From a virus: a stretch of 20,415 bases of DNA. The DNA lies in the IMG/VR virus record IMGVR_UViG_3300031599_000052, positions 1-20,415 of that record, one strand, 5' to 3'. The number at the start of each line of letters is the position of its first letter. Positions within the stretch are counted from its first letter, which is position 1. Position numbers and translations under genes: made by a program. The notes under the pieces are model-generated. The model saw nothing but the letters and a program-made list of their open reading frames with translations. It had not been told where the DNA came from and made no database searches. Of the stretch, positions 1 to 14,203 are shown one piece after another.

Positions 1-1880
1 CCGCCGCCATCATAATATCTAATCTGAACCTCTCCTCCAATATTATGAGTAGTACAAGACCAATATTTAGACCTGTTAAGTTCTAGCGTATTTGCATTTA
101 AAGTGTTAAAATTATGCAGTTCCCCCCAGTCAGCTGAAGTTGGTACATACCAATCCTCATATCCGCCCCAAGTTCCACTAAGAGCAGCATTAACAGCTAA
201 AAGATTTTCACCTTCTTGTGTTTGTAATACGTCACATATATCATCTCCGTAGTTTATATTCCCAATGAAAGGGGCTTCAAATACGTTTGTACTGAAAGCT
301 ATTGCTTCATAGTAATCTACTGGGGCCACAATAAAGCCTTCAGTTAAACCATCTGCGTTAGTACCTGCATAATATAAAGTTCCCCCTCCATATTCATCAC
401 CAACTGTTGGTAACCCTTCTTGAGGAGAATAAGTATAGTCACTAAATGTTGTAGGTGTAGTTACCTCCCCACCGGTTGTGTTTGTTGCATCCGGATCGGT
501 ACAGCCTTCGTAGGTACATGAAGCAGCTACGTGTGTATTTATATTTACAGCCTGGTCAGGATTTATAAGATTCGCTGTACCAGTTTCTGTGTAATCATTA
601 AAATTAAATGCATTTGGATCTAAACATCCATTATTTATTGCGTAACAACTTCCATTATCAGTTGTTGCTGCAGCATTATAGTTGAACATTGTGGCATCCG
701 TACATCCAGGAATTCCTAATGTATATGTACATAACGTATCATCTGCTACGAGGTCTGTACAATTTTCATCTGAAATATCAGTATAATTATCTGCTGACGG
801 ATCTGTACAAACAGAGTAAGCGCACATACCACTATTATCAACATGCCACGGCTCTATAGGGTCTGGTATGTTAGATGCAGGACTAAACGGAGCACATTGG
901 TGGTCACCTGCAGCACTCGTTAAACAAGCATCTTCATATCTCTGGCAATCAGCTGCAACATGTATAGTAGCTAAAGGGTCGTATCCATATGCAGTTTCAT
1001 CTGTACACCCAGAAACAGGTGCTACAACAGTGAATGTATATGAACCTGTGTACGATTCAGAAGAGGGTGGATTACCATGCCCCCCTGGTAGTAAGGCGGT
1101 AACAGTAAGTATTACTGTGTATGTTCCTGCTGCGTAAGTATTAAAAGGTTGGGGTGTATTTGTTACTGTAGAACCGTTCCCCATATTCCAACTCCATGAC
1201 TCAGAAACAGATCCTGGTATATTAACAGTACCAAGAAATTGATATGCTCCGTTAACATCCCCTACATTAATTTCCGCTGTTACTTGAACTTCAGAATCTT
1301 CTGGAGTAGGCGTAAAGGATGGATATGGCATACATAACCCACTATCTTCCCCAGATTCAGCTCCTAAATATGGTAGAGATGTAGAGTAATAGTAGTTACC
1401 ACTAGCAGCTCTTTGATCTAAAATATCCTTAGTAGAATCAGCTGCAGGGTTGTAATTAGAAGCTGTTGGGTCACTACATCCGCTAGTTGAGTTGTAACAT
1501 GTACCAGTCCAACCAACAGAGGTGTCCGCCTCAGGATTATAATTAGTGGCCGTACTATCTGTACAACCTAATATTTTGTAATCTCTAACATCAAGTACAG
1601 TACCTTTACCTATGAAGCACTCCAATGGTGGAGTTTTAATAGATTTTCCTCTGTATTTAAATTTAACATAGTATAGGTTATTTGCACCTATTTTAACTAC
1701 CACCATGGATAGTCCAATCAAAGCTAACACACAATCTGACTGAATTACACCAGTATTTTCGAATCCCTCCTTAGCGGCGTTATTTCGAATTGATATAATA
1801 TTACCTACCGCTAACTGTTCGCTATTCTTAGTTAGTTCTATTGTGGTACTTCTTAGAGGTGATGCTAATATATATGCCAT
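1..1880 (-). CDS. Fibre-like repeat protein with PKD and lectin-like domains (3' partial)
   Basis: The minus frame is open from ATG at 1880 to the window edge, giving 626 residues with no stop; I checked the phase line by line. Residues 1-100 form an N-terminal domain I do not recognise, perhaps the virion anchor. Seven [GV]C[TSL]D-type repeats begin near residues 105, 134, 291, 357, 392, 418 and 459, most with an A-x-N-Y/F-N core and a closing cysteine, as in Bacteroidetes surface proteins. A PKD-like domain lies at about 196-265 (WSWNMGNGS, then GTYTVILTV). From about 498 onward the pattern GGTLYYAG, EDWYVPTSADWGEL, YWSCTT resembles the DUF1566/Lcl_C group of C-type-lectin-like domains; its end lies outside the window. 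It is the last visible gene of the structural cluster. I infer a receptor-binding fibre or virion surface adhesin. The domains are fairly clear; the role is inferred. Confidence 0.8.
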   Translation of the reverse strand, partial: MAYILASPLRSTTIELTKNSEQLAVGNIISIRNNAAKEGFENTGVIQSDCVLALIGLSMVVVKIGANNLYYVKFKYRGKSIKTPPLECFIGKGTVLDVRDYKILGCTDSTATNYNPEADTSVGWTGTCYNSTSGCSDPTASNYNPAADSTKDILDQRAASGNYYYSTSLPYLGAESGEDSGLCMPYPSFTPTPEDSEVQVTAEINVGDVNGAYQFLGTVNIPGSVSESWSWNMGNGSTVTNTPQPFNTYAAGTYTVILTVTALLPGGHGNPPSSESYTGSYTFTVVAPVSGCTDETAYGYDPLATIHVAADCQRYEDACLTSAAGDHQCAPFSPASNIPDPIEPWHVDNSGMCAYSVCTDPSADNYTDISDENCTDLVADDTLCTYTLGIPGCTDATMFNYNAAATTDNGSCYAINNGCLDPNAFNFNDYTETGTANLINPDQAVNINTHVAASCTYEGCTDPDATNTTGGEVTTPTTFSDYTYSPQEGLPTVGDEYGGGTLYYAGTNADGLTEGFIVAPVDYYEAIAFSTNVFEAPFIGNINYGDDICDVLQTQEGENLLAVNAALSGTWGGYEDWYVPTSADWGELHNFNTLNANTLELNRSKYWSCTTHNIGGEVQIRYYDGG

Positions 1881-5062: not shown

Positions 5063-6508
5063 TTATGATGCCACACATTCGATGTCAAGTGAAGTATCAA
5101 ATCTCTTCAATACAATACCTGCAGTCTTCAACATGTGAACAGATGCACCGTCTACGTCAGAAGCTCTAGATGTTCCAGAGTCAAATCCACGAGGTACAAC
5201 AGAACCAGCAACACACCATCTCATCATCTCACGACCCTTCTTATTAATCATCTGTAAATTCGACTGTCCGTCGTAATTAGATTGATCAACAAAAATCATA
5301 CGGTAAGACTCTAACGAATACCCAGTTACCGGGTGCTTGTCACGAGCTTGTGCAATAGGACCATGATCGAACATAGGTAATTTAACAACATTTACTGTAT
5401 GCCCATCTACGTGCTCGTATTGAGTAAAGTAACCTGTTAAACCTAATGAACGTCCAGAACCTGTAATGAAGCGATTCTCTCCACCAATCTTCCACGAGTT
5501 AGCGCTAGATCCACCGAAGTGTCCTTTTAATGCTTCGTCAAATTCACGAGCACCACCAGTTCCTGTGTAAAGAGTGATTTGTTTAGCATTGGCATCAGAC
5601 ATTCCGTAGAATAAGTCACCAATGATATTTTTGATCTTATTTTCAGTTAAAACTGAATAAGTATCCTTATTGATAATCTGCTCTAAAAGACCAGGACCCA
5701 AAATTACTGGTTGTCCATTTTCATCTTTCATTGTAGATTTACCTTTGTCATCGTAAGTCTTTTGACCGTACCAGTAGTACATCTCACATTCTTCTTTGAA
5801 AGAAAGCATGTGTTGATATTCTTCATAGTCCATCCAAAGTTTAGTAGCTCCGCCACCTTTCTTAGGAAGGGTAAATTCAGCCACGAAGTCTTTAGCATTA
5901 CCAGACATGTGGTATGATTTACGAATAGTACCGATCTTGTTACGAACTTTACCAGGAGTTTCCCAGTTAGATGCATTACCACGAGAGAAGTCAACTCCTA
6001 CCGGTGCATACATTTGAGCCCATAAAGCACCTACATCGTTTCCAGCTGTTAGTTTCGCAGACGGGTCTGGATTAACTAATTGTACTGTATAACGATAGTT
6101 AGCTCCAACCTGTACAGGTTCAGCCATGATACGTACTTGCTCACCTGCTCCGTTTACGAGAACGTAAGGGAAGATGAACCATTTATCTGGGAAAGTTAAG
6201 TAGAATGTTCCACCACCTAATCCTAGATTAGAACCGCCATTAGCTGCTGCTATTGGTCTAGTTTTCAACGAATGAGTTTTCACACGATACTCATACTCTA
6301 ATCTATCGATAGACTTTACGTTACCTACACCTTCAGTTAAGAAAGAAAGAGGGAAACGTTTGTCATCTTTACCAGAAAGGTGAGTAATGATCGGTGATAA
6401 TTCCGTTGGCCTAGAAACCATAGCATTAGCTAGACTGTTCATGTCAGTCATTTGAGAATCATTGTAATGATTCTTCTGTACACTAATGTTATTTCCTTGT
6501 ATTGCCAT
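5063..6508 (-). CDS. Major capsid protein
   Basis: A 481-aa protein from ATG 6508, directly after an acidic scaffold-like gene and before a strong terminator, the usual setting of a major capsid gene. Length fits the 480-500 aa capsid proteins of crAss-like and related Bacteroidetes phages. An extended N-arm of about 50 residues leads into RFPLSFLTEGVGNVKSID, followed by beta strands and a long mixed region with many aromatic residues. The C-terminal part (TAGIVLKRFDTSLDIECVAS) ends in a strand. An HK97 fold is expected from the family but cannot be proved here. There is no obvious protease-cleaved delta domain. The hairpin terminator and nearby promoter boxes suggest high late expression. 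Confidence 0.82.
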   Translation of the reverse strand: MAIQGNNISVQKNHYNDSQMTDMNSLANAMVSRPTELSPIITHLSGKDDKRFPLSFLTEGVGNVKSIDRLEYEYRVKTHSLKTRPIAAANGGSNLGLGGGTFYLTFPDKWFIFPYVLVNGAGEQVRIMAEPVQVGANYRYTVQLVNPDPSAKLTAGNDVGALWAQMYAPVGVDFSRGNASNWETPGKVRNKIGTIRKSYHMSGNAKDFVAEFTLPKKGGGATKLWMDYEEYQHMLSFKEECEMYYWYGQKTYDDKGKSTMKDENGQPVILGPGLLEQIINKDTYSVLTENKIKNIIGDLFYGMSDANAKQITLYTGTGGAREFDEALKGHFGGSSANSWKIGGENRFITGSGRSLGLTGYFTQYEHVDGHTVNVVKLPMFDHGPIAQARDKHPVTGYSLESYRMIFVDQSNYDGQSNLQMINKKGREMMRWCVAGSVVPRGFDSGTSRASDVDGASVHMLKTAGIVLKRFDTSLDIECVAS

Positions 6509-6549: not shown

Positions 6550-7656
6550 TTAAATCGAAAGATCCAGATCATCTACATCGACGTCTTTTTTCCTTCTAGT
6601 TGCTCTCTTCGCGCTCTTAACAGATTCTTGTCTGCCAGAAATCTTATCTCTGAGAGTTTGTACACTCTTTGTTTTAGCTCTCGAGTTTACTAACCCGCCT
6701 AAATCAAATCCTTTGTACATTAGATAATCAATTGCTAGCTTTACGTCTACCTCTGCTTCAGAGTGATCAACATCTCGCTGAGTTCTACCTTCATTATCTA
6801 TAGTATTAGATAAGTATCCGAAGAACTTTGATTTATCTTTTTCAGGTATTGTTATACCTGCAAATTCTGATGAGTTAGTGATGGTATTCGAAATATCATC
6901 CCAAAACGACTGTTGCGCCTTTACCTCATCTACTTTAGTCTGTCTCTGCGTTTCATACATTCTCTCTCTTTGAGTGTCCTGGTAAGCGCTTAACGCACCT
7001 TTAGCAGCAGCAGCCTTTTTATATAATTTACCAGAATCCTCATAGTCTTCTAGTAACTCATTTGTAAATGCTTTATCATGACCTTTCAACTCAAAATAGT
7101 TAGCTAATATAGCTCTCTGAGATGCTGTGTCATTTTCATTCAATTCAAATGCAGAATAATCCGCCTTCGGATCATGTGCAGACATGAACTGTTGTGATTC
7201 TCCGCCTTGCATAACGTACTCTAAATGCTGCTTAACTAACGGAAAGTTATTTAATACATCATCTATTCTATCGTCTGCCATCTGGGAAGCTATATCCTTA
7301 GTCATAGCTGTCAACCCTTCTGGAGTATCATCGTATTCTTCTGAGGGTTCGTATCCAAGACTTTCTAAGATCTCTCCTACTACAGAGTCAGATGTATCAG
7401 CCTCGTCGCCATCATCATCGCCTTCATTAGGCTGCTCTTCAGGGTTGTCATCCTCTTCTTCCTCTTCAGGCTCCTCTTCTTCTTCCCCTTCATCACCTTC
7501 TAAGATGTCTTCTAATCCGTTGTCAGGCTCCTCTTCTGGAGCGTCTTCTGGTAATTCAAGGTCTCCTAATGGAGAATCTCCTCCGGTATCTGAAAAAACA
7601 TCGTCTATAGTGATGTCATCCAATGCGATCCCGTCGTTATCGTCTTCTGTAATCAT
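6550..7656 (-). CDS. Acidic scaffold-like / head assembly protein
   Basis: I place the start at ATG 7656 (368 aa). An upstream in-frame TTG at 7680 would lie inside the promoter -7 box (7678-7685). The first 100 residues are extremely acidic (GDEGEEEEEPEEEEEDD and further Asp/Glu runs), the middle is helical (residues about 190-250, with KAQQSFWDDI), and the last 40 residues are basic (RATRRKKD) before an acidic tail. An acidic, helical protein encoded immediately before the capsid gene is typical of scaffolding proteins, with the basic C-terminus suited to contacting the capsid protein. No protease motif is visible. Scaffold role is inferred from composition and position. Confidence 0.72.
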   Translation of the reverse strand: MITEDDNDGIALDDITIDDVFSDTGGDSPLGDLELPEDAPEEEPDNGLEDILEGDEGEEEEEPEEEEEDDNPEEQPNEGDDDGDEADTSDSVVGEILESLGYEPSEEYDDTPEGLTAMTKDIASQMADDRIDDVLNNFPLVKQHLEYVMQGGESQQFMSAHDPKADYSAFELNENDTASQRAILANYFELKGHDKAFTNELLEDYEDSGKLYKKAAAAKGALSAYQDTQRERMYETQRQTKVDEVKAQQSFWDDISNTITNSSEFAGITIPEKDKSKFFGYLSNTIDNEGRTQRDVDHSEAEVDVKLAIDYLMYKGFDLGGLVNSRAKTKSVQTLRDKISGRQESVKSAKRATRRKKDVDVDDLDLSI

Positions 7657-7677
7657 ATCTATTGGTTTTATTGTTAA

Positions 7678-7713
7678 CAAAAATACGCAATATATCTATA
7701 ACTTTTATACAAA
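7678..7713 (-). promoter_or_regulatory. Bacteroidetes-type promoter before the scaffold-capsid pair
   Basis: The minus strand carries TATTTTTG (7685-7678), a perfect TAnnTTTG -7 box, with TTTG at 7713-7710. The spacer is 24 nt, longer than the usual 19-21, so the -33 assignment is weak. Transcription would start about 15 bases before ATG 7656. The 88-base gap between the multidomain gene and this one contains no other obvious element. Confidence 0.5.
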
Positions 7714-7768: not shown

Positions 7769-10700
7769 CTATATTCCTCCATTACCCTGAGTCTCTTTCC
7801 CGTCACTGTAGGTCTTAGCACCTAAGGCTGCAGCTCCAGCAACCATAGGCAGCTGATTAAGAGAGTTAGCTAACAAGGTAAAGTTAGTTTTAGTAGGCCC
7901 CATAAAATCAAATATCCTTTGAGGACTAGAGATAGAGGTAGGGGTGTGCCCCGCCGTAAATATATCATTATTTTTAGTTGTATGTCTGTAAGCAGGATTT
8001 TTTGTCAGCTCACGGTAAGCAACTTCCAACTGTTCTGGGGTAACATTTTCAAAATACCCATCGTCTGCGTATTTCATGTACCCTTTCTCCATAAGAACAC
8101 TCCTAAGTTCTGCTCCGAATGCAGTAGGTTCCCTAGAGTTACCATTAGATCCCCTTACGAAGTAATCGTAAGCTGACATAGCTTCTGGAGAAAGGTCATC
8201 TTTAGGAGTTATTTTAGCAAACTCTGTATCCAACACCGTTCTCTCTCCTTTTTGTAAGAAATGGTTAATCTCATGATGCATAGTCGGAACATTATCTACG
8301 TGAGTAGTACCTAATCCCATCATATCTTCTGGCCTAACCTGAACCCCATATTGACCAACTGTTGCACCTTTAGGGAAGTACGCAGCATTATTAAATAAAG
8401 AGCTGCTTGCAAAATTAGAATTTTGAATGTTGGTATTTCCAACTATATTGGCAGCCTTGTAATCTGCCGCCATACGATTATAGGTTGGGGCATTTCGTAG
8501 CCTATCTATACGCATCTTAGCTTTCTGTAAAGACGTATGAGAATTAAGCATTGGAGCCATAGATGGGGAATACATGTCTGCAAGCCTCTGTGTACCTCTA
8601 GTAGTCGAAAGCTCTCTAACTCTATTAGCTATAACAGAGTCGAATTTATCCGCACCGCTAGCAAGTTCATTCATAAATCTTACCGCCTCCCCTGGATTAG
8701 GGCTCGTCATAAACGACTCATAATTTAAATTGGGGGAGTTAGAGTAAGATATGTTGTTAAGTCCCACACCTTCCGTTCCTGAAAACCTCTCTACCTTACG
8801 TAAAGCTATATCCCGTGCCGTTAAAGGTGTAGGTGTAGGTCTATTCCATGGAAACTTAGGTAACTTAGGTAGTGTAAACCCAAGTTCAGATACATTGGAT
8901 GTATTCGAAGCAGCCTGTCCCGGTAAGTTCAGCGGGCTTGTAGTTTCTACAGCGGCAGCAACTAAAGGATTATCTACTTTCTTAATAACATTCGTAGCAG
9001 TGTTCAAGTTAATATTTGGTACAGGTATAGTAGGAACTGTAGACTTAACATTCTTTACTGTCTTAAGAGCTTTAAGTGATTTTACCCCTTTATCTATTAG
9101 ACCTAATGTTTTCCCAACAGGAAACAGAACCTCAGGTATAATGTTGTGAGGAGTAATCTCTCCCCCACTAGGTGTACCATCCCACTCAGGTCTAAGATTT
9201 CTGAAAGAGTCGTATTCATATCCTTCAGGAATTACAGGGGATACATACCCAGGCAGATTATCATTAAGGTGCTCATCAAGTAATGGGTTGAACGGTACTT
9301 TAACTTTTGTATTTAAAGTTTCTTGTGTGTTATTATAAACTGATGTATTATCAGAGGCTGAATATAAATCTGCGTAAGGGTCATATACTGGTGGATCATG
9401 TGGTCCTAACCCCCCATGATTAAATTTCTTTCTTATTCCTCCATTCTTGTGGGTACGATGTAGCCCCTCCATTATGTTTTTATTTAGAGGTATAGCCTCT
9501 TCTAAATCTTTAAGTCTTTTACTTCCACCTATACCTTTAGTTACATATATAGAGTCATGCCCTTTACCCATTATTTCTTTAATCTTTTCTACGGACCAAA
9601 CCTCAGGTTTAGGGGCATAGAAAGGGTTTTTAGAATTCATGTATGTTTGGTATCGAACATTCCCGTAATCTTTATACTTAGTTGCATTTGGAGTAAACCA
9701 AGTCATATTGTTAGGGACTGATCCAGACCCTCTTGTGTTTACATTAACTAAGTCTATAGGGTCCATGATAGTTCTTCCATCAGCTTTTACATTGTCAGCT
9801 AACCTTTGATTTCTATAAAAAGGTGTAGGAGCTTCTAACTTTAACTGCTTAGCCTTGGAAGGTTTTAGTATATTAGACACTATAGCGTCATCTCCCTTCT
9901 TAACAATCCCTTTAGACATGGTAGATAGATACTCTGGTGTTACAGCTCCAGCCTTACTTATATTTTTGGTAGTCTTCACTGCGTTGGCTCCAAGTTTTAA
10001 TGTCTTCCCAACAGGAAACATTAACTCAGGTAAAATATTATCCGGTGTAATCTCCCCTGATTGAGGGGTTCCGTCCCAGTTATCCTGAAGCTTTCCTGTC
10101 GCAGGACTCCAATGCGTACCCTCAGAGGTTTGAAATGAAGCATTAAGCTCCGCAGTACTGTTTACTTGTGTGTTGTCAGACTCTGACATTATATCTTTAT
10201 AAGGGTCAAATGTTGGTCCCGTATATTCTTCGTATTTCTTCTTTTTCTTATTCTTTACCCCTCCGTTCTCGAAGCTAGGTCTAGGGTACTGAGGTAATTT
10301 CCAGGAGCCTCCTGCAAATTTTGCTGCTTCCTTTTCAGTATCGAAAGGGATTCCCTCGCCTGCATTCATAGCTTGCCTAAAAGATTGAGGATGATACACA
10401 CTATCAGCGTATGGAGCCCTGTCGTTTGTCACAGAGGGTGCAGAGTAATACTTCCCATCTGCTTCATATGTTCTAGATAAATGTGTAGAGTGTGTATTTG
10501 GGGCCTGCTCAAAATCTAATGCATAATTTTCTCCCTGAGCGGGCCTCATCATTCTATATTTTCTAGCCTTATCTGCGTTAGTAGGGGGGTCACCCTTAAT
10601 TCCACCTTTCTTGTACGTCTTCTTGAATCCCCCCTCACTGTAACCTGTTACATTCTTGGCCATGTCCCATAAACTAACTTTCTTAGTTTCATGCGGTACA

Positions 10701-11887
10701 TACTTCTTAAGACTTTTAACTTCATCTAAAGATAATCCTAGATCTCTGTACGAGCCTAGGTTTATATCTACAGGTAGCTTAGATTTTATATGATCTGCAG
10801 CGCTGTGTGCGTTCTGCCAAGGATTATCATACTTACCTTTAGTTATTTCGTCCCACACTTTACCTGCAGATGCTCCCGTCTTCTCTATATTCTTTTGTGA
10901 CGGGTTAAAATCATAACTGTCAGAGACATGTACATTACCAAGCTCATCTATTGTGTAGTTTGCGTTTCCAGTTAAAGCATATAATGCTTCTCTTGTACTG
11001 TTACTTCCAGAAGGAAGGAAATCATCTATTAGAGTATTAGCAACTCCACGAGATTTTAAAACCTTTAAAGCTGCACTACTAGATGATGCATTCTTGACAT
11101 CACTTTTATTACTGTAATCCCTGTAATCTACTACACCGTCCTTACCTTTGTTTAAGTTGTCCCTTAAAATTGATTTGTAAGAAGCAAGTTCATCCGCTCG
11201 TAAGTCGTCCTCATCCACATCAAAGAAGGATTCATCGTCCTTTACAAATCCATAGTGTTGAAGCATTGAATTGGCAAGGTACTGAACGTAAGATTGCACT
11301 GATTGTGATGCACTATCTAATGTTGTCCTCTGAGCCTGACCTTTAAGCCAGTCCATGGTACCAATACTATCACTAGATGTTCTGTTAGTATATTTAGCAT
11401 AAGCTTTTGCGGTATCTTCACCCCAATCACCGTCTACACCATCACCATTTGCACCAAACTCACCAAGATCGTACCCTTCATCAACTAGTAAAGCTTGAAG
11501 AGCCATTATATCTTTCTTCCCTTTAGGACGTTTAGGTCCTCCTTCTTCATATTGTTTAATACCCCCATCTCTATACTGCCCAGGTTGAACAAAAGATGTG
11601 TTTCTAGATCCGGAAGTTTGATTTAATCCTACACCAGTTTTACCTGGAGTGACAAATTCCTTGCTAGAGGGTTGTGATTGTGGTATAGCTTGAGCTGGAG
11701 GTGGTGGAACTGGAGCTAGGGGAGGCATTTGTACAGCCTGCTGTTGACCCTGTTGCTGAGGGGCGCCTTGTTGAGACTCCGCCTGAGCAGCTCTTTCTTC
11801 CTCTTGAGCAATAGCCTCATACGCAGGAACCTCAAGGCTCCCTTGTATCGACTGCTTAATTATATCCAGCTTACTTACACTATCCAT
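7769..11887 (-). CDS. Large multidomain virion protein: PG-binding, ART-like and metallopeptidase domains
   Basis: A 1372-aa protein from ATG 11887 to a TAG stop. Residues 1-100 are Gln/Pro/Ala-rich and disordered. Residues about 121-168 match a peptidoglycan-binding-1-like domain (LQALLVDEGYDLG, then DGVDGDWGEDTAKAY). About 470-530 is a short module common in phage virion proteins (DGKYYSAPSV, then GIPFDTEKEAAKFA). About 688-800 resembles an ADP-ribosyltransferase core (FYRNQ, WFTPNATKYKDYG, then NPFY). About 1100-1300 is a zinc metallopeptidase-like domain with HEINH at 1205-1209 and a candidate third ligand at Glu1253 or Glu1260. Basic linkers of the form GG[IVF]K separate the parts, and residues 553-650 and 829-950 are two copies of one segment. 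Placed between portal and scaffold, it is probably packaged in the head and injected, or attacks the cell wall at entry. Domain roles are inferred from motifs. Confidence 0.8.
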   Translation of the reverse strand: MDSVSKLDIIKQSIQGSLEVPAYEAIAQEEERAAQAESQQGAPQQQGQQQAVQMPPLAPVPPPPAQAIPQSQPSSKEFVTPGKTGVGLNQTSGSRNTSFVQPGQYRDGGIKQYEEGGPKRPKGKKDIMALQALLVDEGYDLGEFGANGDGVDGDWGEDTAKAYAKYTNRTSSDSIGTMDWLKGQAQRTTLDSASQSVQSYVQYLANSMLQHYGFVKDDESFFDVDEDDLRADELASYKSILRDNLNKGKDGVVDYRDYSNKSDVKNASSSSAALKVLKSRGVANTLIDDFLPSGSNSTREALYALTGNANYTIDELGNVHVSDSYDFNPSQKNIEKTGASAGKVWDEITKGKYDNPWQNAHSAADHIKSKLPVDINLGSYRDLGLSLDEVKSLKKYVPHETKKVSLWDMAKNVTGYSEGGFKKTYKKGGIKGDPPTNADKARKYRMMRPAQGENYALDFEQAPNTHSTHLSRTYEADGKYYSAPSVTNDRAPYADSVYHPQSFRQAMNAGEGIPFDTEKEAAKFAGGSWKLPQYPRPSFENGGVKNKKKKKYEEYTGPTFDPYKDIMSESDNTQVNSTAELNASFQTSEGTHWSPATGKLQDNWDGTPQSGEITPDNILPELMFPVGKTLKLGANAVKTTKNISKAGAVTPEYLSTMSKGIVKKGDDAIVSNILKPSKAKQLKLEAPTPFYRNQRLADNVKADGRTIMDPIDLVNVNTRGSGSVPNNMTWFTPNATKYKDYGNVRYQTYMNSKNPFYAPKPEVWSVEKIKEIMGKGHDSIYVTKGIGGSKRLKDLEEAIPLNKNIMEGLHRTHKNGGIRKKFNHGGLGPHDPPVYDPYADLYSASDNTSVYNNTQETLNTKVKVPFNPLLDEHLNDNLPGYVSPVIPEGYEYDSFRNLRPEWDGTPSGGEITPHNIIPEVLFPVGKTLGLIDKGVKSLKALKTVKNVKSTVPTIPVPNINLNTATNVIKKVDNPLVAAAVETTSPLNLPGQAASNTSNVSELGFTLPKLPKFPWNRPTPTPLTARDIALRKVERFSGTEGVGLNNISYSNSPNLNYESFMTSPNPGEAVRFMNELASGADKFDSVIANRVRELSTTRGTQRLADMYSPSMAPMLNSHTSLQKAKMRIDRLRNAPTYNRMAADYKAANIVGNTNIQNSNFASSSLFNNAAYFPKGATVGQYGVQVRPEDMMGLGTTHVDNVPTMHHEINHFLQKGERTVLDTEFAKITPKDDLSPEAMSAYDYFVRGSNGNSREPTAFGAELRSVLMEKGYMKYADDGYFENVTPEQLEVAYRELTKNPAYRHTTKNNDIFTAGHTPTSISSPQRIFDFMGPTKTNFTLLANSLNQLPMVAGAAALGAKTYSDGKETQGNGGI

Positions 11888-11893
11888 GTGATA

Positions 11894-14203
11894 TTATTTA
11901 GAAGGGTTACTTTTACTCTCTTTTCTTTTTGCTGCAGCTAGTTTTTTCGATTCATTCTTGGAACCCTCAGATATTTTACTCTTATCTATGGATTCTTTAG
12001 CTTGATTCGATCTAACTGTTTCTGAAGCTTGAGATCCTTTAGTATCTGCCTCTCCCTCTTTTATATCTAACTCTCTATCTTTAAGTATAGCGTCATTTTC
12101 ATTTTTAGCATGACTAACTCCCGCAGAGATTTCAGCAACATCTATTTTGTTCTGTCTGTCCTTCTCGTTGTTCATGTTCTCATTCTCTACCTCAGCTTGT
12201 TGTTGTTCTAGTTGAGCTTGAGCTTGAGCTTGTTCAGCCTGTTGTGCAGCCTCTTCCAACTCTTGTTGTGCAGCTTCTGCTTTCTTAAGATTAGATTTAA
12301 TCTGAGAGAAACTCTTAGAATCTAACATCTCTACTACAGCTGATGCTGGTAAACCGTTCTGAATCATTGCTTGACTCATCTGTCTAGCCATCTCTATCTT
12401 CTCAATCTCATCACCAGAATCCGTCATCCATAAACCATATTCTGATTCCATATGCTCTGAAGACTCTACGTCTAAGAACTCTGCCATACCATCCGGCATG
12501 ATGAACGATGCTTTCTTACCATTTACCCACGCTTCTTTGGAATAATCCAACAAAGCTTGCATATCTCGTTGCTCTAATTGATTGAACTTACGATATAAAT
12601 CCTCAGTAATATGAGATGACTGAATTATAGCCTGCTGGCTGGACGCTTTTCCTTCATAGGCACCAATGTCACCCTGACGCTGTCTATTGACACCAGAGAG
12701 CTTCTCCCACTCCTCCATGACAGAGTTTAAGAGTACGATATACTGCTCAATAGTTTTGATAGACATATCTAAGACAGATTGATGTTGTGGAGAGAGTTGA
12801 ACTCCTTCCTTATTATAATCTACCCAAGCGATTCCTGTACCCTCAACAAAGTGCATGAACTTGTCCATATCCCACTTCTTAGGTATCATATTAATATCAA
12901 ACTGTGCAATTATTCCCTTAGAGCGAGCGATAGCGAGCTCAAGACGATACTTGTACACATTATAAGTCAATTGATAAGGTACCCCTAAAGAAACTAGGGA
13001 TATATTTTCAGCATTCACATCTGAATATCTTCTACCATTAATAGGTAGTTTACATAAAGACGGGTTGTCTAAAGATGAGCGTTGGTTTGTTATAGGCTTA
13101 ATATCCTTAAACATTCTACCATCGATTTTATGTCCACCCCAAACTTCATTAACCCATAGCCATTCAAGTTTAGCTCCTTGTTCTTTAAGTTCTTTAGGCA
13201 TTTTAAATCCATCTTCAACTTCCATTTCTTCCATCTCTCCTGTTTCAGGATTAGGGAAAGCCACAAAGCCGATACGTTTTCTAGACTTCCAATAGACAGT
13301 GATAAGTTCTATCAGTCTGTTACTGAACTGGTTGCCATTAGGACCTGATGATCCCATAGCTAGCCAAGGTATATGAGAGTTACCCATACCATGTGGCTCT
13401 TCTAAACTAAGAGATTCTTCATCAGTAAGTTCATCATGAAAGTAATCTATAAGTGTGGACGCATGTACAAACTTTCGTACTATAGCCCAATCTCCATCCT
13501 CAACAAAGTCAAGATCTGGATCTAAATCGTAATCAACATCAATAGGATTAAGTATATCATAGAAGACTTCGTTATGTCTAACCCCTCTATGTGTATACAC
13601 TTCTCCGGATACTAAGTAGTGGAACCAAGCTTTGTTAAGCTTATCCTGCACTTCTTCTTTAGCCATGATATAGTTCATAGAGTTCTGTCCCATAATAGCT
13701 CTGTTATCTACATAGCTATTATTGAAAAGCTCTTCTATTTGCTCTGGCATATCTATTTCAGTAGGATCCATACCGGTATCTATCCCAGCTTTAGAAGCTG
13801 CGTTAGCGAAGTGTTCCTGTAAGTTTCTGTAGATACTCTCGTTCTTAGCCTCTTCTTTTCTGGTTACAGAGTTTGCGTTTAGAACTCCAACAGTAAAGTT
13901 TAGAGGTCTTTTAGCTTTCTCACCTAGTAAAAGGTCAATGATGGGTTTAATTATAGGGAAATTCCTCAGTGTAGAGGGAAAGTTTTTACGTGCTTTACCA
14001 TACGGCTTAAGTATCTTAGAGTAGTCAGACTCATCAATAACTCCGTTATACATATCATAGTACTTCCGTAATTCATCTCTCCTATTGGACATGGATGAAG
14101 TGTTGGTTGATAGATCTATATACCCATCAATACATGCTTCTCTCCATTCCTTATTCTTCTTATTCATAGGCAGTTTCTGCCTAGGTAAACTATCGTATCC
14201 CAT
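11894..14203 (-). CDS. Portal protein
   Basis: A 769-aa protein from ATG 14203, directly after the large terminase gene, the standard place for the portal. Residues 81-96 (NFPIIKPIIDLLLGEK) and the surrounding N-terminal region match, as I recall them, the long portals of crAss-like phages. The middle contains mixed alpha/beta sequence with WAIVRKFVH and conserved-looking NRQRQGDIGAYEGKASSQQA. The last 130 residues (about 640-769) are unusual: a Gln/Glu/Ala-rich coiled coil followed by a charged, Lys/Ser/Glu-rich tail, perhaps reaching into the head or forming the barrel. The portal forms the dodecameric DNA gate at one capsid vertex. Only six bases separate it from the multidomain gene, so the two are probably co-expressed. 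Confidence 0.85.
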   Translation of the reverse strand: MGYDSLPRQKLPMNKKNKEWREACIDGYIDLSTNTSSMSNRRDELRKYYDMYNGVIDESDYSKILKPYGKARKNFPSTLRNFPIIKPIIDLLLGEKAKRPLNFTVGVLNANSVTRKEEAKNESIYRNLQEHFANAASKAGIDTGMDPTEIDMPEQIEELFNNSYVDNRAIMGQNSMNYIMAKEEVQDKLNKAWFHYLVSGEVYTHRGVRHNEVFYDILNPIDVDYDLDPDLDFVEDGDWAIVRKFVHASTLIDYFHDELTDEESLSLEEPHGMGNSHIPWLAMGSSGPNGNQFSNRLIELITVYWKSRKRIGFVAFPNPETGEMEEMEVEDGFKMPKELKEQGAKLEWLWVNEVWGGHKIDGRMFKDIKPITNQRSSLDNPSLCKLPINGRRYSDVNAENISLVSLGVPYQLTYNVYKYRLELAIARSKGIIAQFDINMIPKKWDMDKFMHFVEGTGIAWVDYNKEGVQLSPQHQSVLDMSIKTIEQYIVLLNSVMEEWEKLSGVNRQRQGDIGAYEGKASSQQAIIQSSHITEDLYRKFNQLEQRDMQALLDYSKEAWVNGKKASFIMPDGMAEFLDVESSEHMESEYGLWMTDSGDEIEKIEMARQMSQAMIQNGLPASAVVEMLDSKSFSQIKSNLKKAEAAQQELEEAAQQAEQAQAQAQLEQQQAEVENENMNNEKDRQNKIDVAEISAGVSHAKNENDAILKDRELDIKEGEADTKGSQASETVRSNQAKESIDKSKISEGSKNESKKLAAAKRKESKSNPSK

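What the first reader, a model, noticed from the sequence alone, without database searches (positions are those of the whole stretch)
7769..11887. Multidomain 'effector-like' virion protein between portal and scaffold genes
One 1372-aa protein joins a peptidoglycan-binding-like domain (about 121-168), a short virion module (about 470-530), an ADP-ribosyltransferase-like region (about 688-800) and an HExxH metallopeptidase-like domain (about 1100-1300). The order and position suggest a packaged, injected protein that combines wall binding with two possible host-modifying activities, resembling the polyvalent proteins of phages and plasmids. The domains are read from motifs; the combination in a Bacteroidetes phage head cluster seems little described.
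Basis: partly seen in the sequence, partly recalled or inferred. Interest (0 to 1): 0.8.

Follow-up and report, generated by a model that had tools for sequence, protein, structure and literature searches.

The report
Swappable-module protein beside crassvirus portal
A marine relative of the gut crAss phages carries, next to the gene for its DNA gateway, one large protein built from interchangeable parts (a wall-binding part, a probable protease and a possible host-modifying enzyme), and its relatives keep the front end and swap the rest, which suggests a loading slot for proteins injected into the bacterium.

Summary
The 1372-aa ORF is real, intact and recovered identically from two other assemblies. 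It lies between portal and scaffold of a marine Crassvirales phage. The domains are unequally supported. Wall binding (121-168) is confirmed by family profile. The HExxH module (HEINH at 1205) is supported as a divergent relative of the metallopeptidase found in the same slot of gut crassviruses. The 470-530 region is a genuine recurring module. The ART call is only motif-level: Pfam ART-PolyVal does not match, AlphaFold was inconclusive, and the putative catalytic Glu is missing in both homologues.

The larger finding is the family. In all 59 loci with both flanks, this slot holds an ORF whose length varies 327-1553 aa (CV 0.38) while portal, scaffold and MCP are constant (CV 0.01-0.02). An N-terminal anchor is kept; exchangeable cassettes follow (transglycosylase, lysozyme, wall-binding, HExxH peptidases, one Pfam-certified ART-PolyVal), with homology breaks at GG linkers (GGh[KRP]..Y..GG: 43 seen, 0.09 expected). 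Best reading: a packaged, injected modular cargo protein, functionally like MuF toxins and polyvalent proteins but without a MuF domain. Packaging and injection are inferred, not shown.

The parts
7769..11887 (-). modular portal-scaffold slot protein, 1372 aa
   Evidence: intact ORF; identical in two other assemblies
11567..11887 (-). N-terminal anchor, residues 1-107, ending at Y104-xx-G107-G108
   Evidence: Y104, G107, G108 at 90% or more in 57 slot proteins; N-terminal domain of one subtype found in 8 of 13 long contigs, at one place each and in the slot; dN/dS median 0.18
11531..11578 (-). double-GG linker 1 (YRDGGIKQYEEGG)
   Evidence: motif 43 observed vs 0.09 expected in slot proteins, 0 in portal/scaffold/MCP/TerL
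11384..11527 (-). PG_binding_1-like domain, residues 121-168
   Evidence: 7 of 11 homologues hit PG_binding_1; PDB chain 4nso E 4.4e-6 by family profile
10643..11320 (-). core module with invariant DxYDFNxS motif, residues about 190-415, function unknown
   Evidence: homologous at other positions in L004, L005, L006, L019, L021, L028, L123
10592..10645 (-). double-GG linker 2 (GYSEGGFKKTYKKGG)
10280..10570 (-). recurring 'STHL' module, residues 440-536, function unknown
   Evidence: hmmsearch E 1e-28 or better in L011, L012, L013, L015, L020, L066, L071, L097 at different positions
9938..10267 (-). leader segment copy 1 (residues 541-650): GG/K linker, FDPY..SDNT, GEITPDNILPELMFPVGK
   Evidence: 49% identical to copy 2; alignment score 171 vs at most 44 in 500 shuffles
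9470..9829 (-). ART-like module, residues 687-806 (YR..., WFTPN..Y, GHDSI, EEAIPL)
   Evidence: homologues L050 299-435 and L096 895-1026, 37-38% identity, both just after a hydrophobic pretoxin-like segment; no Pfam ART match
9068..9448 (-). double-GG linker 3 (NGGIRKKFNHGG) plus leader segment copy 2, residues 814-940
7808..8830 (-). HExxH metallopeptidase-like module, residues about 1020-1360, with hydrophobic C-terminal tail
   Evidence: profile alignment of residues 1180-1372 to slot proteins of cr50_1, cr10_1, cr55_1, cr53_1 and cr6_1, score 28.9 vs null maximum 23.7 in 149 segments
8261..8275 (-). HEINH zinc-binding motif, residues 1205-1209
8129..8131 (-). E1253, putative third zinc ligand, first residue of E-x7-L-[KR]-x2-[LM]-x3-G
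   Evidence: signature shared with four gut crassvirus slot proteins; strict form occurs once in 53,073 aa of marine slot proteins
11894..14203 (-). portal protein
   Evidence: phrog_6547 E 7e-121
6550..7680 (-). probable scaffold (acidic, directly upstream of MCP)
   Evidence: position; phrog_16294 E 4e-4, unknown function
5063..6508 (-). major capsid protein, Crassvirales type
   Evidence: PF23898 E 2.8e-81

Best explanation
The gene is the window phage's version of a hypervariable portal-adjacent cargo slot of crassviruses. A conserved N-terminal anchor (conservation shown; function inferred) holds the protein in the procapsid near the portal. Behind it come cassettes joined by double-GG, lysine/tyrosine-rich linkers; cassettes are gained by recombination or duplication at these linkers (homology breaks there: shown). 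The protein is packaged and ejected through the portal and tail ahead of or with the DNA (inferred). The wall-binding cassette and, in relatives, transglycosylase and lysozyme cassettes help to cross the peptidoglycan (domain identity shown, role inferred). The HExxH module is a zinc peptidase that either cuts the multidomain chain apart after delivery or cleaves a host protein (inferred). The ART-like module modifies a host target or is an inactive descendant of such an enzyme (weak).
For: Slot length CV 0.384 (n=59) vs portal 0.017, scaffold 0.018, MCP 0.009, TerL 0.044. Homology blocks end a median 3 aa from a GG vs 14 aa for random points, 615 boundaries. Linker motif 43 vs 0.09 expected; absent from about 120,000 aa of portal/scaffold/MCP/TerL. 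Conserved N-terminus, where detected present at one place per contig and in the slot. Cassettes found in the slot: SLT in 10 of 57, PG_binding_1 in 3, ABC1-kinase-like in 2, pesticin-type lysozyme in 1, ART-PolyVal in L125, HExxH 9 observed vs 0.66 expected. PHROG hits include 'internal virion protein with endolysin domain' in 9 members. Gut Suoliviridae use the same slot for a glucosaminidase plus LysM protein, a protein annotated as peptidoglycan hydrolase, and HExxH proteins. The window HExxH module is related to the last. Purifying selection: dN/dS medians 0.18 for the anchor, 0.43 for modules, 0.115 for portal. Precedents: crAss001 carries cargo proteins in capsid and tail (PMC10172136); muf genes lie directly downstream of portal genes (PMC5576092).
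Against: No proteomics of any phage in this clade; packaging and ejection are inferred from position and cassette type. The crAss001 cargo proteins gp45/gp46 are encoded elsewhere, and its portal-adjacent gene product gp21 is an external head fibre (PMC10172136). phi14:2 and Fpv1 have no slot gene, so it is dispensable in some crassviruses. ART not demonstrated. AF2 models of both enzymatic modules have pLDDT about 40.
Confidence: 0.6

Rival explanations
1. An external head-fibre or decoration protein: the N-terminus docks in capsid hexons, as crAss001 gp21 and gp29 do, and the cassettes are displayed outside to bind cell-wall or surface polymers.
For: crAss001 gp21, a head fibre, is encoded directly after the portal gene and is anchored by its first 38 residues; the window protein has a wall-binding domain and beta-rich modules occur in relatives.
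Against: No visible similarity of gp21 to the slot N-terminus (by eye); ART-PolyVal, kinase-like and peptidase cassettes are hard to use outside a cell; hydrophobic pretoxin-like segments precede effector-type cassettes in 19 of 74 relatives.
Confidence: 0.15
2. A lysis or assembly factor that is not delivered: a late muralytic protein used from inside at lysis, with accreted, partly decayed domains.
For: SLT, lysozyme, glucosaminidase and LysM domains are common in the slot; ART-like catalytic Glu not conserved in L050 and L096.
Against: Fixed position between portal and scaffold in every locus tested; pesticin-type lysozyme coexists with a kinase-like cassette (L018) and ART-type cassettes with a C-terminal lysozyme-like segment (L125); purifying selection on the anchor.
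Confidence: 0.1
3. A structural ejection protein (functional equivalent of T7 gp16 or the P22 ejection proteins) in which the enzymes only open the envelope and none acts on the host cytoplasm.
For: PHROG 'internal virion protein with endolysin domain' hits in 9 of 57 relatives; most certain cassettes are muralytic.
Against: Cassette turnover is high; ART-PolyVal and kinase-like cassettes act on cytoplasmic targets in known systems.
Confidence: 0.15

Closest known systems
MuF polymorphic toxins of temperate phages (Jamet et al. 2017, PMC5576092)
   Same: Gene directly downstream of the portal gene, conserved N-terminal head-associated part, variable C-terminal extensions including metallopeptidases and ADP-ribosyltransferases.
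   Different: No MuF domain detectable here; several cassettes in tandem instead of one C-terminal toxin; double-GG linkers; Crassvirales instead of temperate phages of Firmicutes; immunity genes were not searched for.
Polyvalent proteins of phages and conjugative elements (Iyer et al. 2017, PMC5512222)
   Same: Many disparate domains in one polypeptide near virion genes; ART and metallopeptidase types; one slot relative (L125) carries ART-PolyVal itself.
   Different: The window protein hits no polyvalent Pfam family; cassettes in the family are dominated by wall-active domains; fixed portal-scaffold slot with a lineage-specific anchor.
Slot peptidases and glucosaminidases of gut Suoliviridae (cr50_1, cr10_1, cr55_1, cr53_1, cr130_1, cr7_1)
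   Same: Same genomic slot; HExxH followed by E-x7-L-x3-[LM]-x3-G and a hydrophobic C-terminal tail shared with the window HExxH module.
   Different: Single-module proteins of about 370-430 aa, one activity each, with a different N-terminus.
Cargo proteins C1/C2 of PhicrAss001 (gp45/gp46, PMC10172136)
   Same: Large crassvirus proteins thought to be stored in capsid and tail and ejected before DNA.
   Different: Encoded after the tail muzzle gene, not after the portal; homology to the slot protein was not tested here.

Membership tests
Crassvirales | Crass_capsid MCP with TerL-portal-MCP-ring gene order | tested here: met
   PF23898 E 2.8e-81, weak ring protein hit; PHROG portal and TerL
PG_binding_1 domain | profile match over residues 121-168 | tested here: met
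   7 of 11 homologues hit Pfam, best 1.3e-7; 4nso E 4.4e-6 with the family profile; the window sequence alone gives no hit
ADP-ribosyltransferase (ART-PolyVal) | match to PF18760 | tested here: not met
   no match at E 10; a different slot protein, L125, matches at 3e-14
ADP-ribosyltransferase (ART-PolyVal) | conserved catalytic residues | tested here: inconclusive
   YR conserved in 3 of 3; Glu at the expected last strand in the window only, Ser in L050 and L096 (placement by eye)
ADP-ribosyltransferase (ART-PolyVal) | ART fold | tested here: inconclusive
   AF2 pLDDT 41 with 3 sequences; hhalign to an ART-like group probability 12%
HExxH metallopeptidase of crassvirus slots | HExxH plus downstream Glu helix in the shared spacing | tested here: met
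   HEINH 1205-1209, E1253 signature; profile score above all 149 null segments; hhalign probability itself only 27%
HExxH metallopeptidase of crassvirus slots | zincin fold | tested here: inconclusive
   single-sequence AF2 pLDDT 39
MuF proteins | location directly downstream of the portal gene | tested here: met
MuF proteins | MuF domain at the N-terminus | tested here: not met
   no MuF-type Pfam hit in any of 57 slot proteins; the N-terminus is DUF192-like in 26
Polyvalent proteins | two or more disparate enzymatic domains in one polypeptide near virion genes | tested here: inconclusive
   met by position; in the window one enzymatic domain is supported and one is not
Polyvalent proteins | transfer into the host with the DNA | not testable with these tools
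   needs virion proteomics or a delivery assay

The most novel reading that the evidence does not exclude
Crassviruses have their own effector-loading slot: a portal-adjacent gene whose conserved, non-MuF N-terminus loads a chain of cassettes into the virion, with double-GG linkers as exchange and perhaps processing points, so that related phages inject different sets of wall-cutting enzymes, peptidases and host-modifying enzymes into Bacteroidota.
Probability: 0.4. Interest if true: 0.85.

Novelty: new variant of a known kind. Interest (0 to 1): 0.72.

Why it matters
Crassviruses are the dominant phages of the human gut, and which proteins they inject besides their RNA polymerase is open. The passages of the structure, genome and review papers read here (PMC10172136, PMC7886860, PMC10136315) do not describe a hypervariable modular gene between portal and scaffold. 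If the slot is an effector-loading site, reading it across phages would list what crassviruses deliver, explain part of their host adaptation, and point to a portal-proximal delivery tag that can be tested in Bacteroidota.

Tried and rejected
Pfam, PHROGs and NCBIfam on the window protein alone: nothing. tblastn of the whole protein in 50,697 phage records: no match; of the HExxH and ART-like modules: chance hits only. IMG/VR and GTDB scans with the HExxH module: only self, or nothing. AF2 of both modules: too uncertain, so no fold search was run. ART module profile against PDB: a bromodomain at E 0.013, judged chance. hhalign of the window HExxH to the L035/L066/L099 HExxH family: not significant. 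hhalign to the gut slot peptidases with longer inputs failed, but the HExxH-to-end comparison ranked first of 150; the region and the member set were changed after seeing the first result, so the rank is not a clean p-value, and the E-x7-L signature was also found by eye before it was counted. Considered and rejected: assembly chimera (identical in other contigs). The pretoxin-like hydrophobic segment is not found in the window itself, so it bears on the family only; its likeness to polymorphic-toxin segments is from memory, and Pfam does not name it.
Full report
What is there. The window is the packaging and head region of a marine Crassvirales phage: the MCP matches Crass_capsid at E 2.8e-81, the portal phrog_6547 at 7e-121 and TerL phrog_6681 at 6e-133. 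On the minus strand the order is TerL, portal, the 1372-aa gene, an acidic probable scaffold, MCP, further head and ring-type genes. The 1372-aa frame is intact and is 100% identical in two contigs from other metagenomes, one of them truncated.

Family view. Searches with three portal sequences returned three sets of 80 loci, which reduce to 104 distinct portals. In all 59 loci where both portal and scaffold are present, an ORF lies between them. Its length runs from 327 to 1553 aa (CV 0.384), while portal, scaffold, MCP and TerL have CVs of 0.017, 0.018, 0.009 and 0.044. The N-terminus is conserved to a Y-xx-GG motif (Y104, G107, G108 at 90% or more). In 26 of 57 members it carries a DUF192-type domain. 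In the 8 of 13 long contigs where the tested subtype was detected, it lay at one place, in the slot.

Modularity. Local homologies between slot proteins stop a median of 3 residues from a GG dipeptide, against 14 for random points (615 boundaries from non-independent pairs). The linker GGh[KRP]..[YFH]..GG occurs 43 times in 31 of 74 proteins, against 0.09 in shuffles, and never in portal, scaffold, MCP or TerL. The window has three copies. The 2325-aa protein after the portal of Azobacteroides phage ProJPt-Bp1 has similar GG..PRY..GG linkers, so the trait is not limited to this clade. In the window the leader segment is duplicated (49% identity, score 171 vs at most 44 in shuffles) in front of both the ART-like and the HExxH module; L054 and L057 have a weak double match too.

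The four claimed domains. (1) Residues 121-168 are a PG_binding_1 domain: the window sequence alone does not reach Pfam, but 7 of 11 homologues do, and the family profile matches the wall-binding part of PDB 4nso at 4.4e-6. (2) Residues 440-536 form a recurring module of unknown function. (3) Residues 687-806 are an exchangeable module with homologues in L050 and L096. The layout is ART-like, but Pfam ART-PolyVal does not match, AlphaFold is inconclusive, hhalign to another ART-like group gives 12%, and the presumed catalytic Glu is replaced in both relatives. What supports an effector role is position: in L050 and L096 the module follows a hydrophobic segment that in other slot proteins precedes ART-like domains, and L125 in the same slot has a certified ART-PolyVal at 3e-14. 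(4) HExxH is at 1205-1209. HExxH is enriched in the slot family, 9 vs 0.66 expected. Gut Suoliviridae carry in the same slot proteins annotated as peptidases, and these share with the window module E-x7-L-[KR]-x2-[LM]-x3-G downstream of HExxH and a hydrophobic tail. The profile score exceeds all 149 control segments, though the comparison was refined after a first negative one and the hhalign probability is only 27%.

The slot outside this clade. cr130_1 has a glucosaminidase (E 5.5e-8) and a LysM protein there; cr7_1 has a gene annotated as peptidoglycan hydrolase; cr50_1, cr10_1, cr55_1 and cr53_1 have HExxH proteins; cr1_1 keeps the first part of the cr50_1-type protein and lacks the peptidase part. 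phi14:2 and Fpv1 have no such gene.

Selection. dN/dS medians are 0.115 for portal, 0.18 for the anchor and 0.43 for downstream modules; pairs are not independent, and some module values include poorly aligned ends. The proteins are coding and constrained, with faster evolution of the cassettes.

Mechanism. Shown: conserved anchor, variable cassettes, exchange at linkers, wall-active and peptidase cassette identities. Inferred: packaging near the portal, ejection with or before the DNA, wall passage, and cleavage or modification of host targets. crAss001 is known to store cargo proteins in capsid and tail (PMC10172136), which makes the route plausible; but crAss001's own portal-adjacent gene product is a head fibre, so an external location remains a live rival.

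Comparison with known systems. The architecture works like MuF toxins, whose genes also follow the portal gene and whose C-termini include metallopeptidases and ARTs (PMC5576092), and like polyvalent proteins (PMC5512222). It is not a MuF protein (no MuF domain), and the window protein is not a certified polyvalent protein. I therefore file it as a new variant of a known kind.

Noticed in passing
window 3-1880 (-): Open-ended ORF with a PKD domain (E 1e-4), GCTD..A.NYN cysteine repeats and a weak Lcl_C match: probable tail or receptor-binding protein.
   Followed up: no
window 10643-11320 (-): Core module with invariant DxYDFNxS motif in 11 homologues; resembles the DxYD motif of colicin M-type enzymes from memory only, no database support.
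   Followed up: partly
L165 704-1855 (ProJPt-Bp1 PJPA_026): Annotated as a VIP2-type ADP-ribosylating toxin family protein, but no Pfam family matches and it sits in the scaffold position next to the MCP; probably misannotated.
   Followed up: partly
L018 11355-14084: Slot protein combining a pesticin-type lysozyme (E 1e-11) with a protein-kinase-like module.
   Followed up: partly
L125 9294-13952: 1553-aa slot protein: DUF192-type anchor, beta-rich module, ART-PolyVal, a second ART-like module and a C-terminal lysozyme-like segment.
   Followed up: partly
19 of 74 nonredundant slot proteins, e.g. L096 172-222 and 816-861, L080 189-239: About 50-aa hydrophobic segment (VGMIPxxGExxDxxNAxxYxxxGNYxxAAxSxAAxIPFxG) preceding effector-type modules; reminiscent of pre-toxin segments of polymorphic toxins, not named by Pfam.
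   Followed up: partly
window 17201-17623 (-): Small protein with a CxxC...CGKCGC cysteine pattern upstream of the terminase, conserved in L005: probable zinc-ribbon protein.
   Followed up: no
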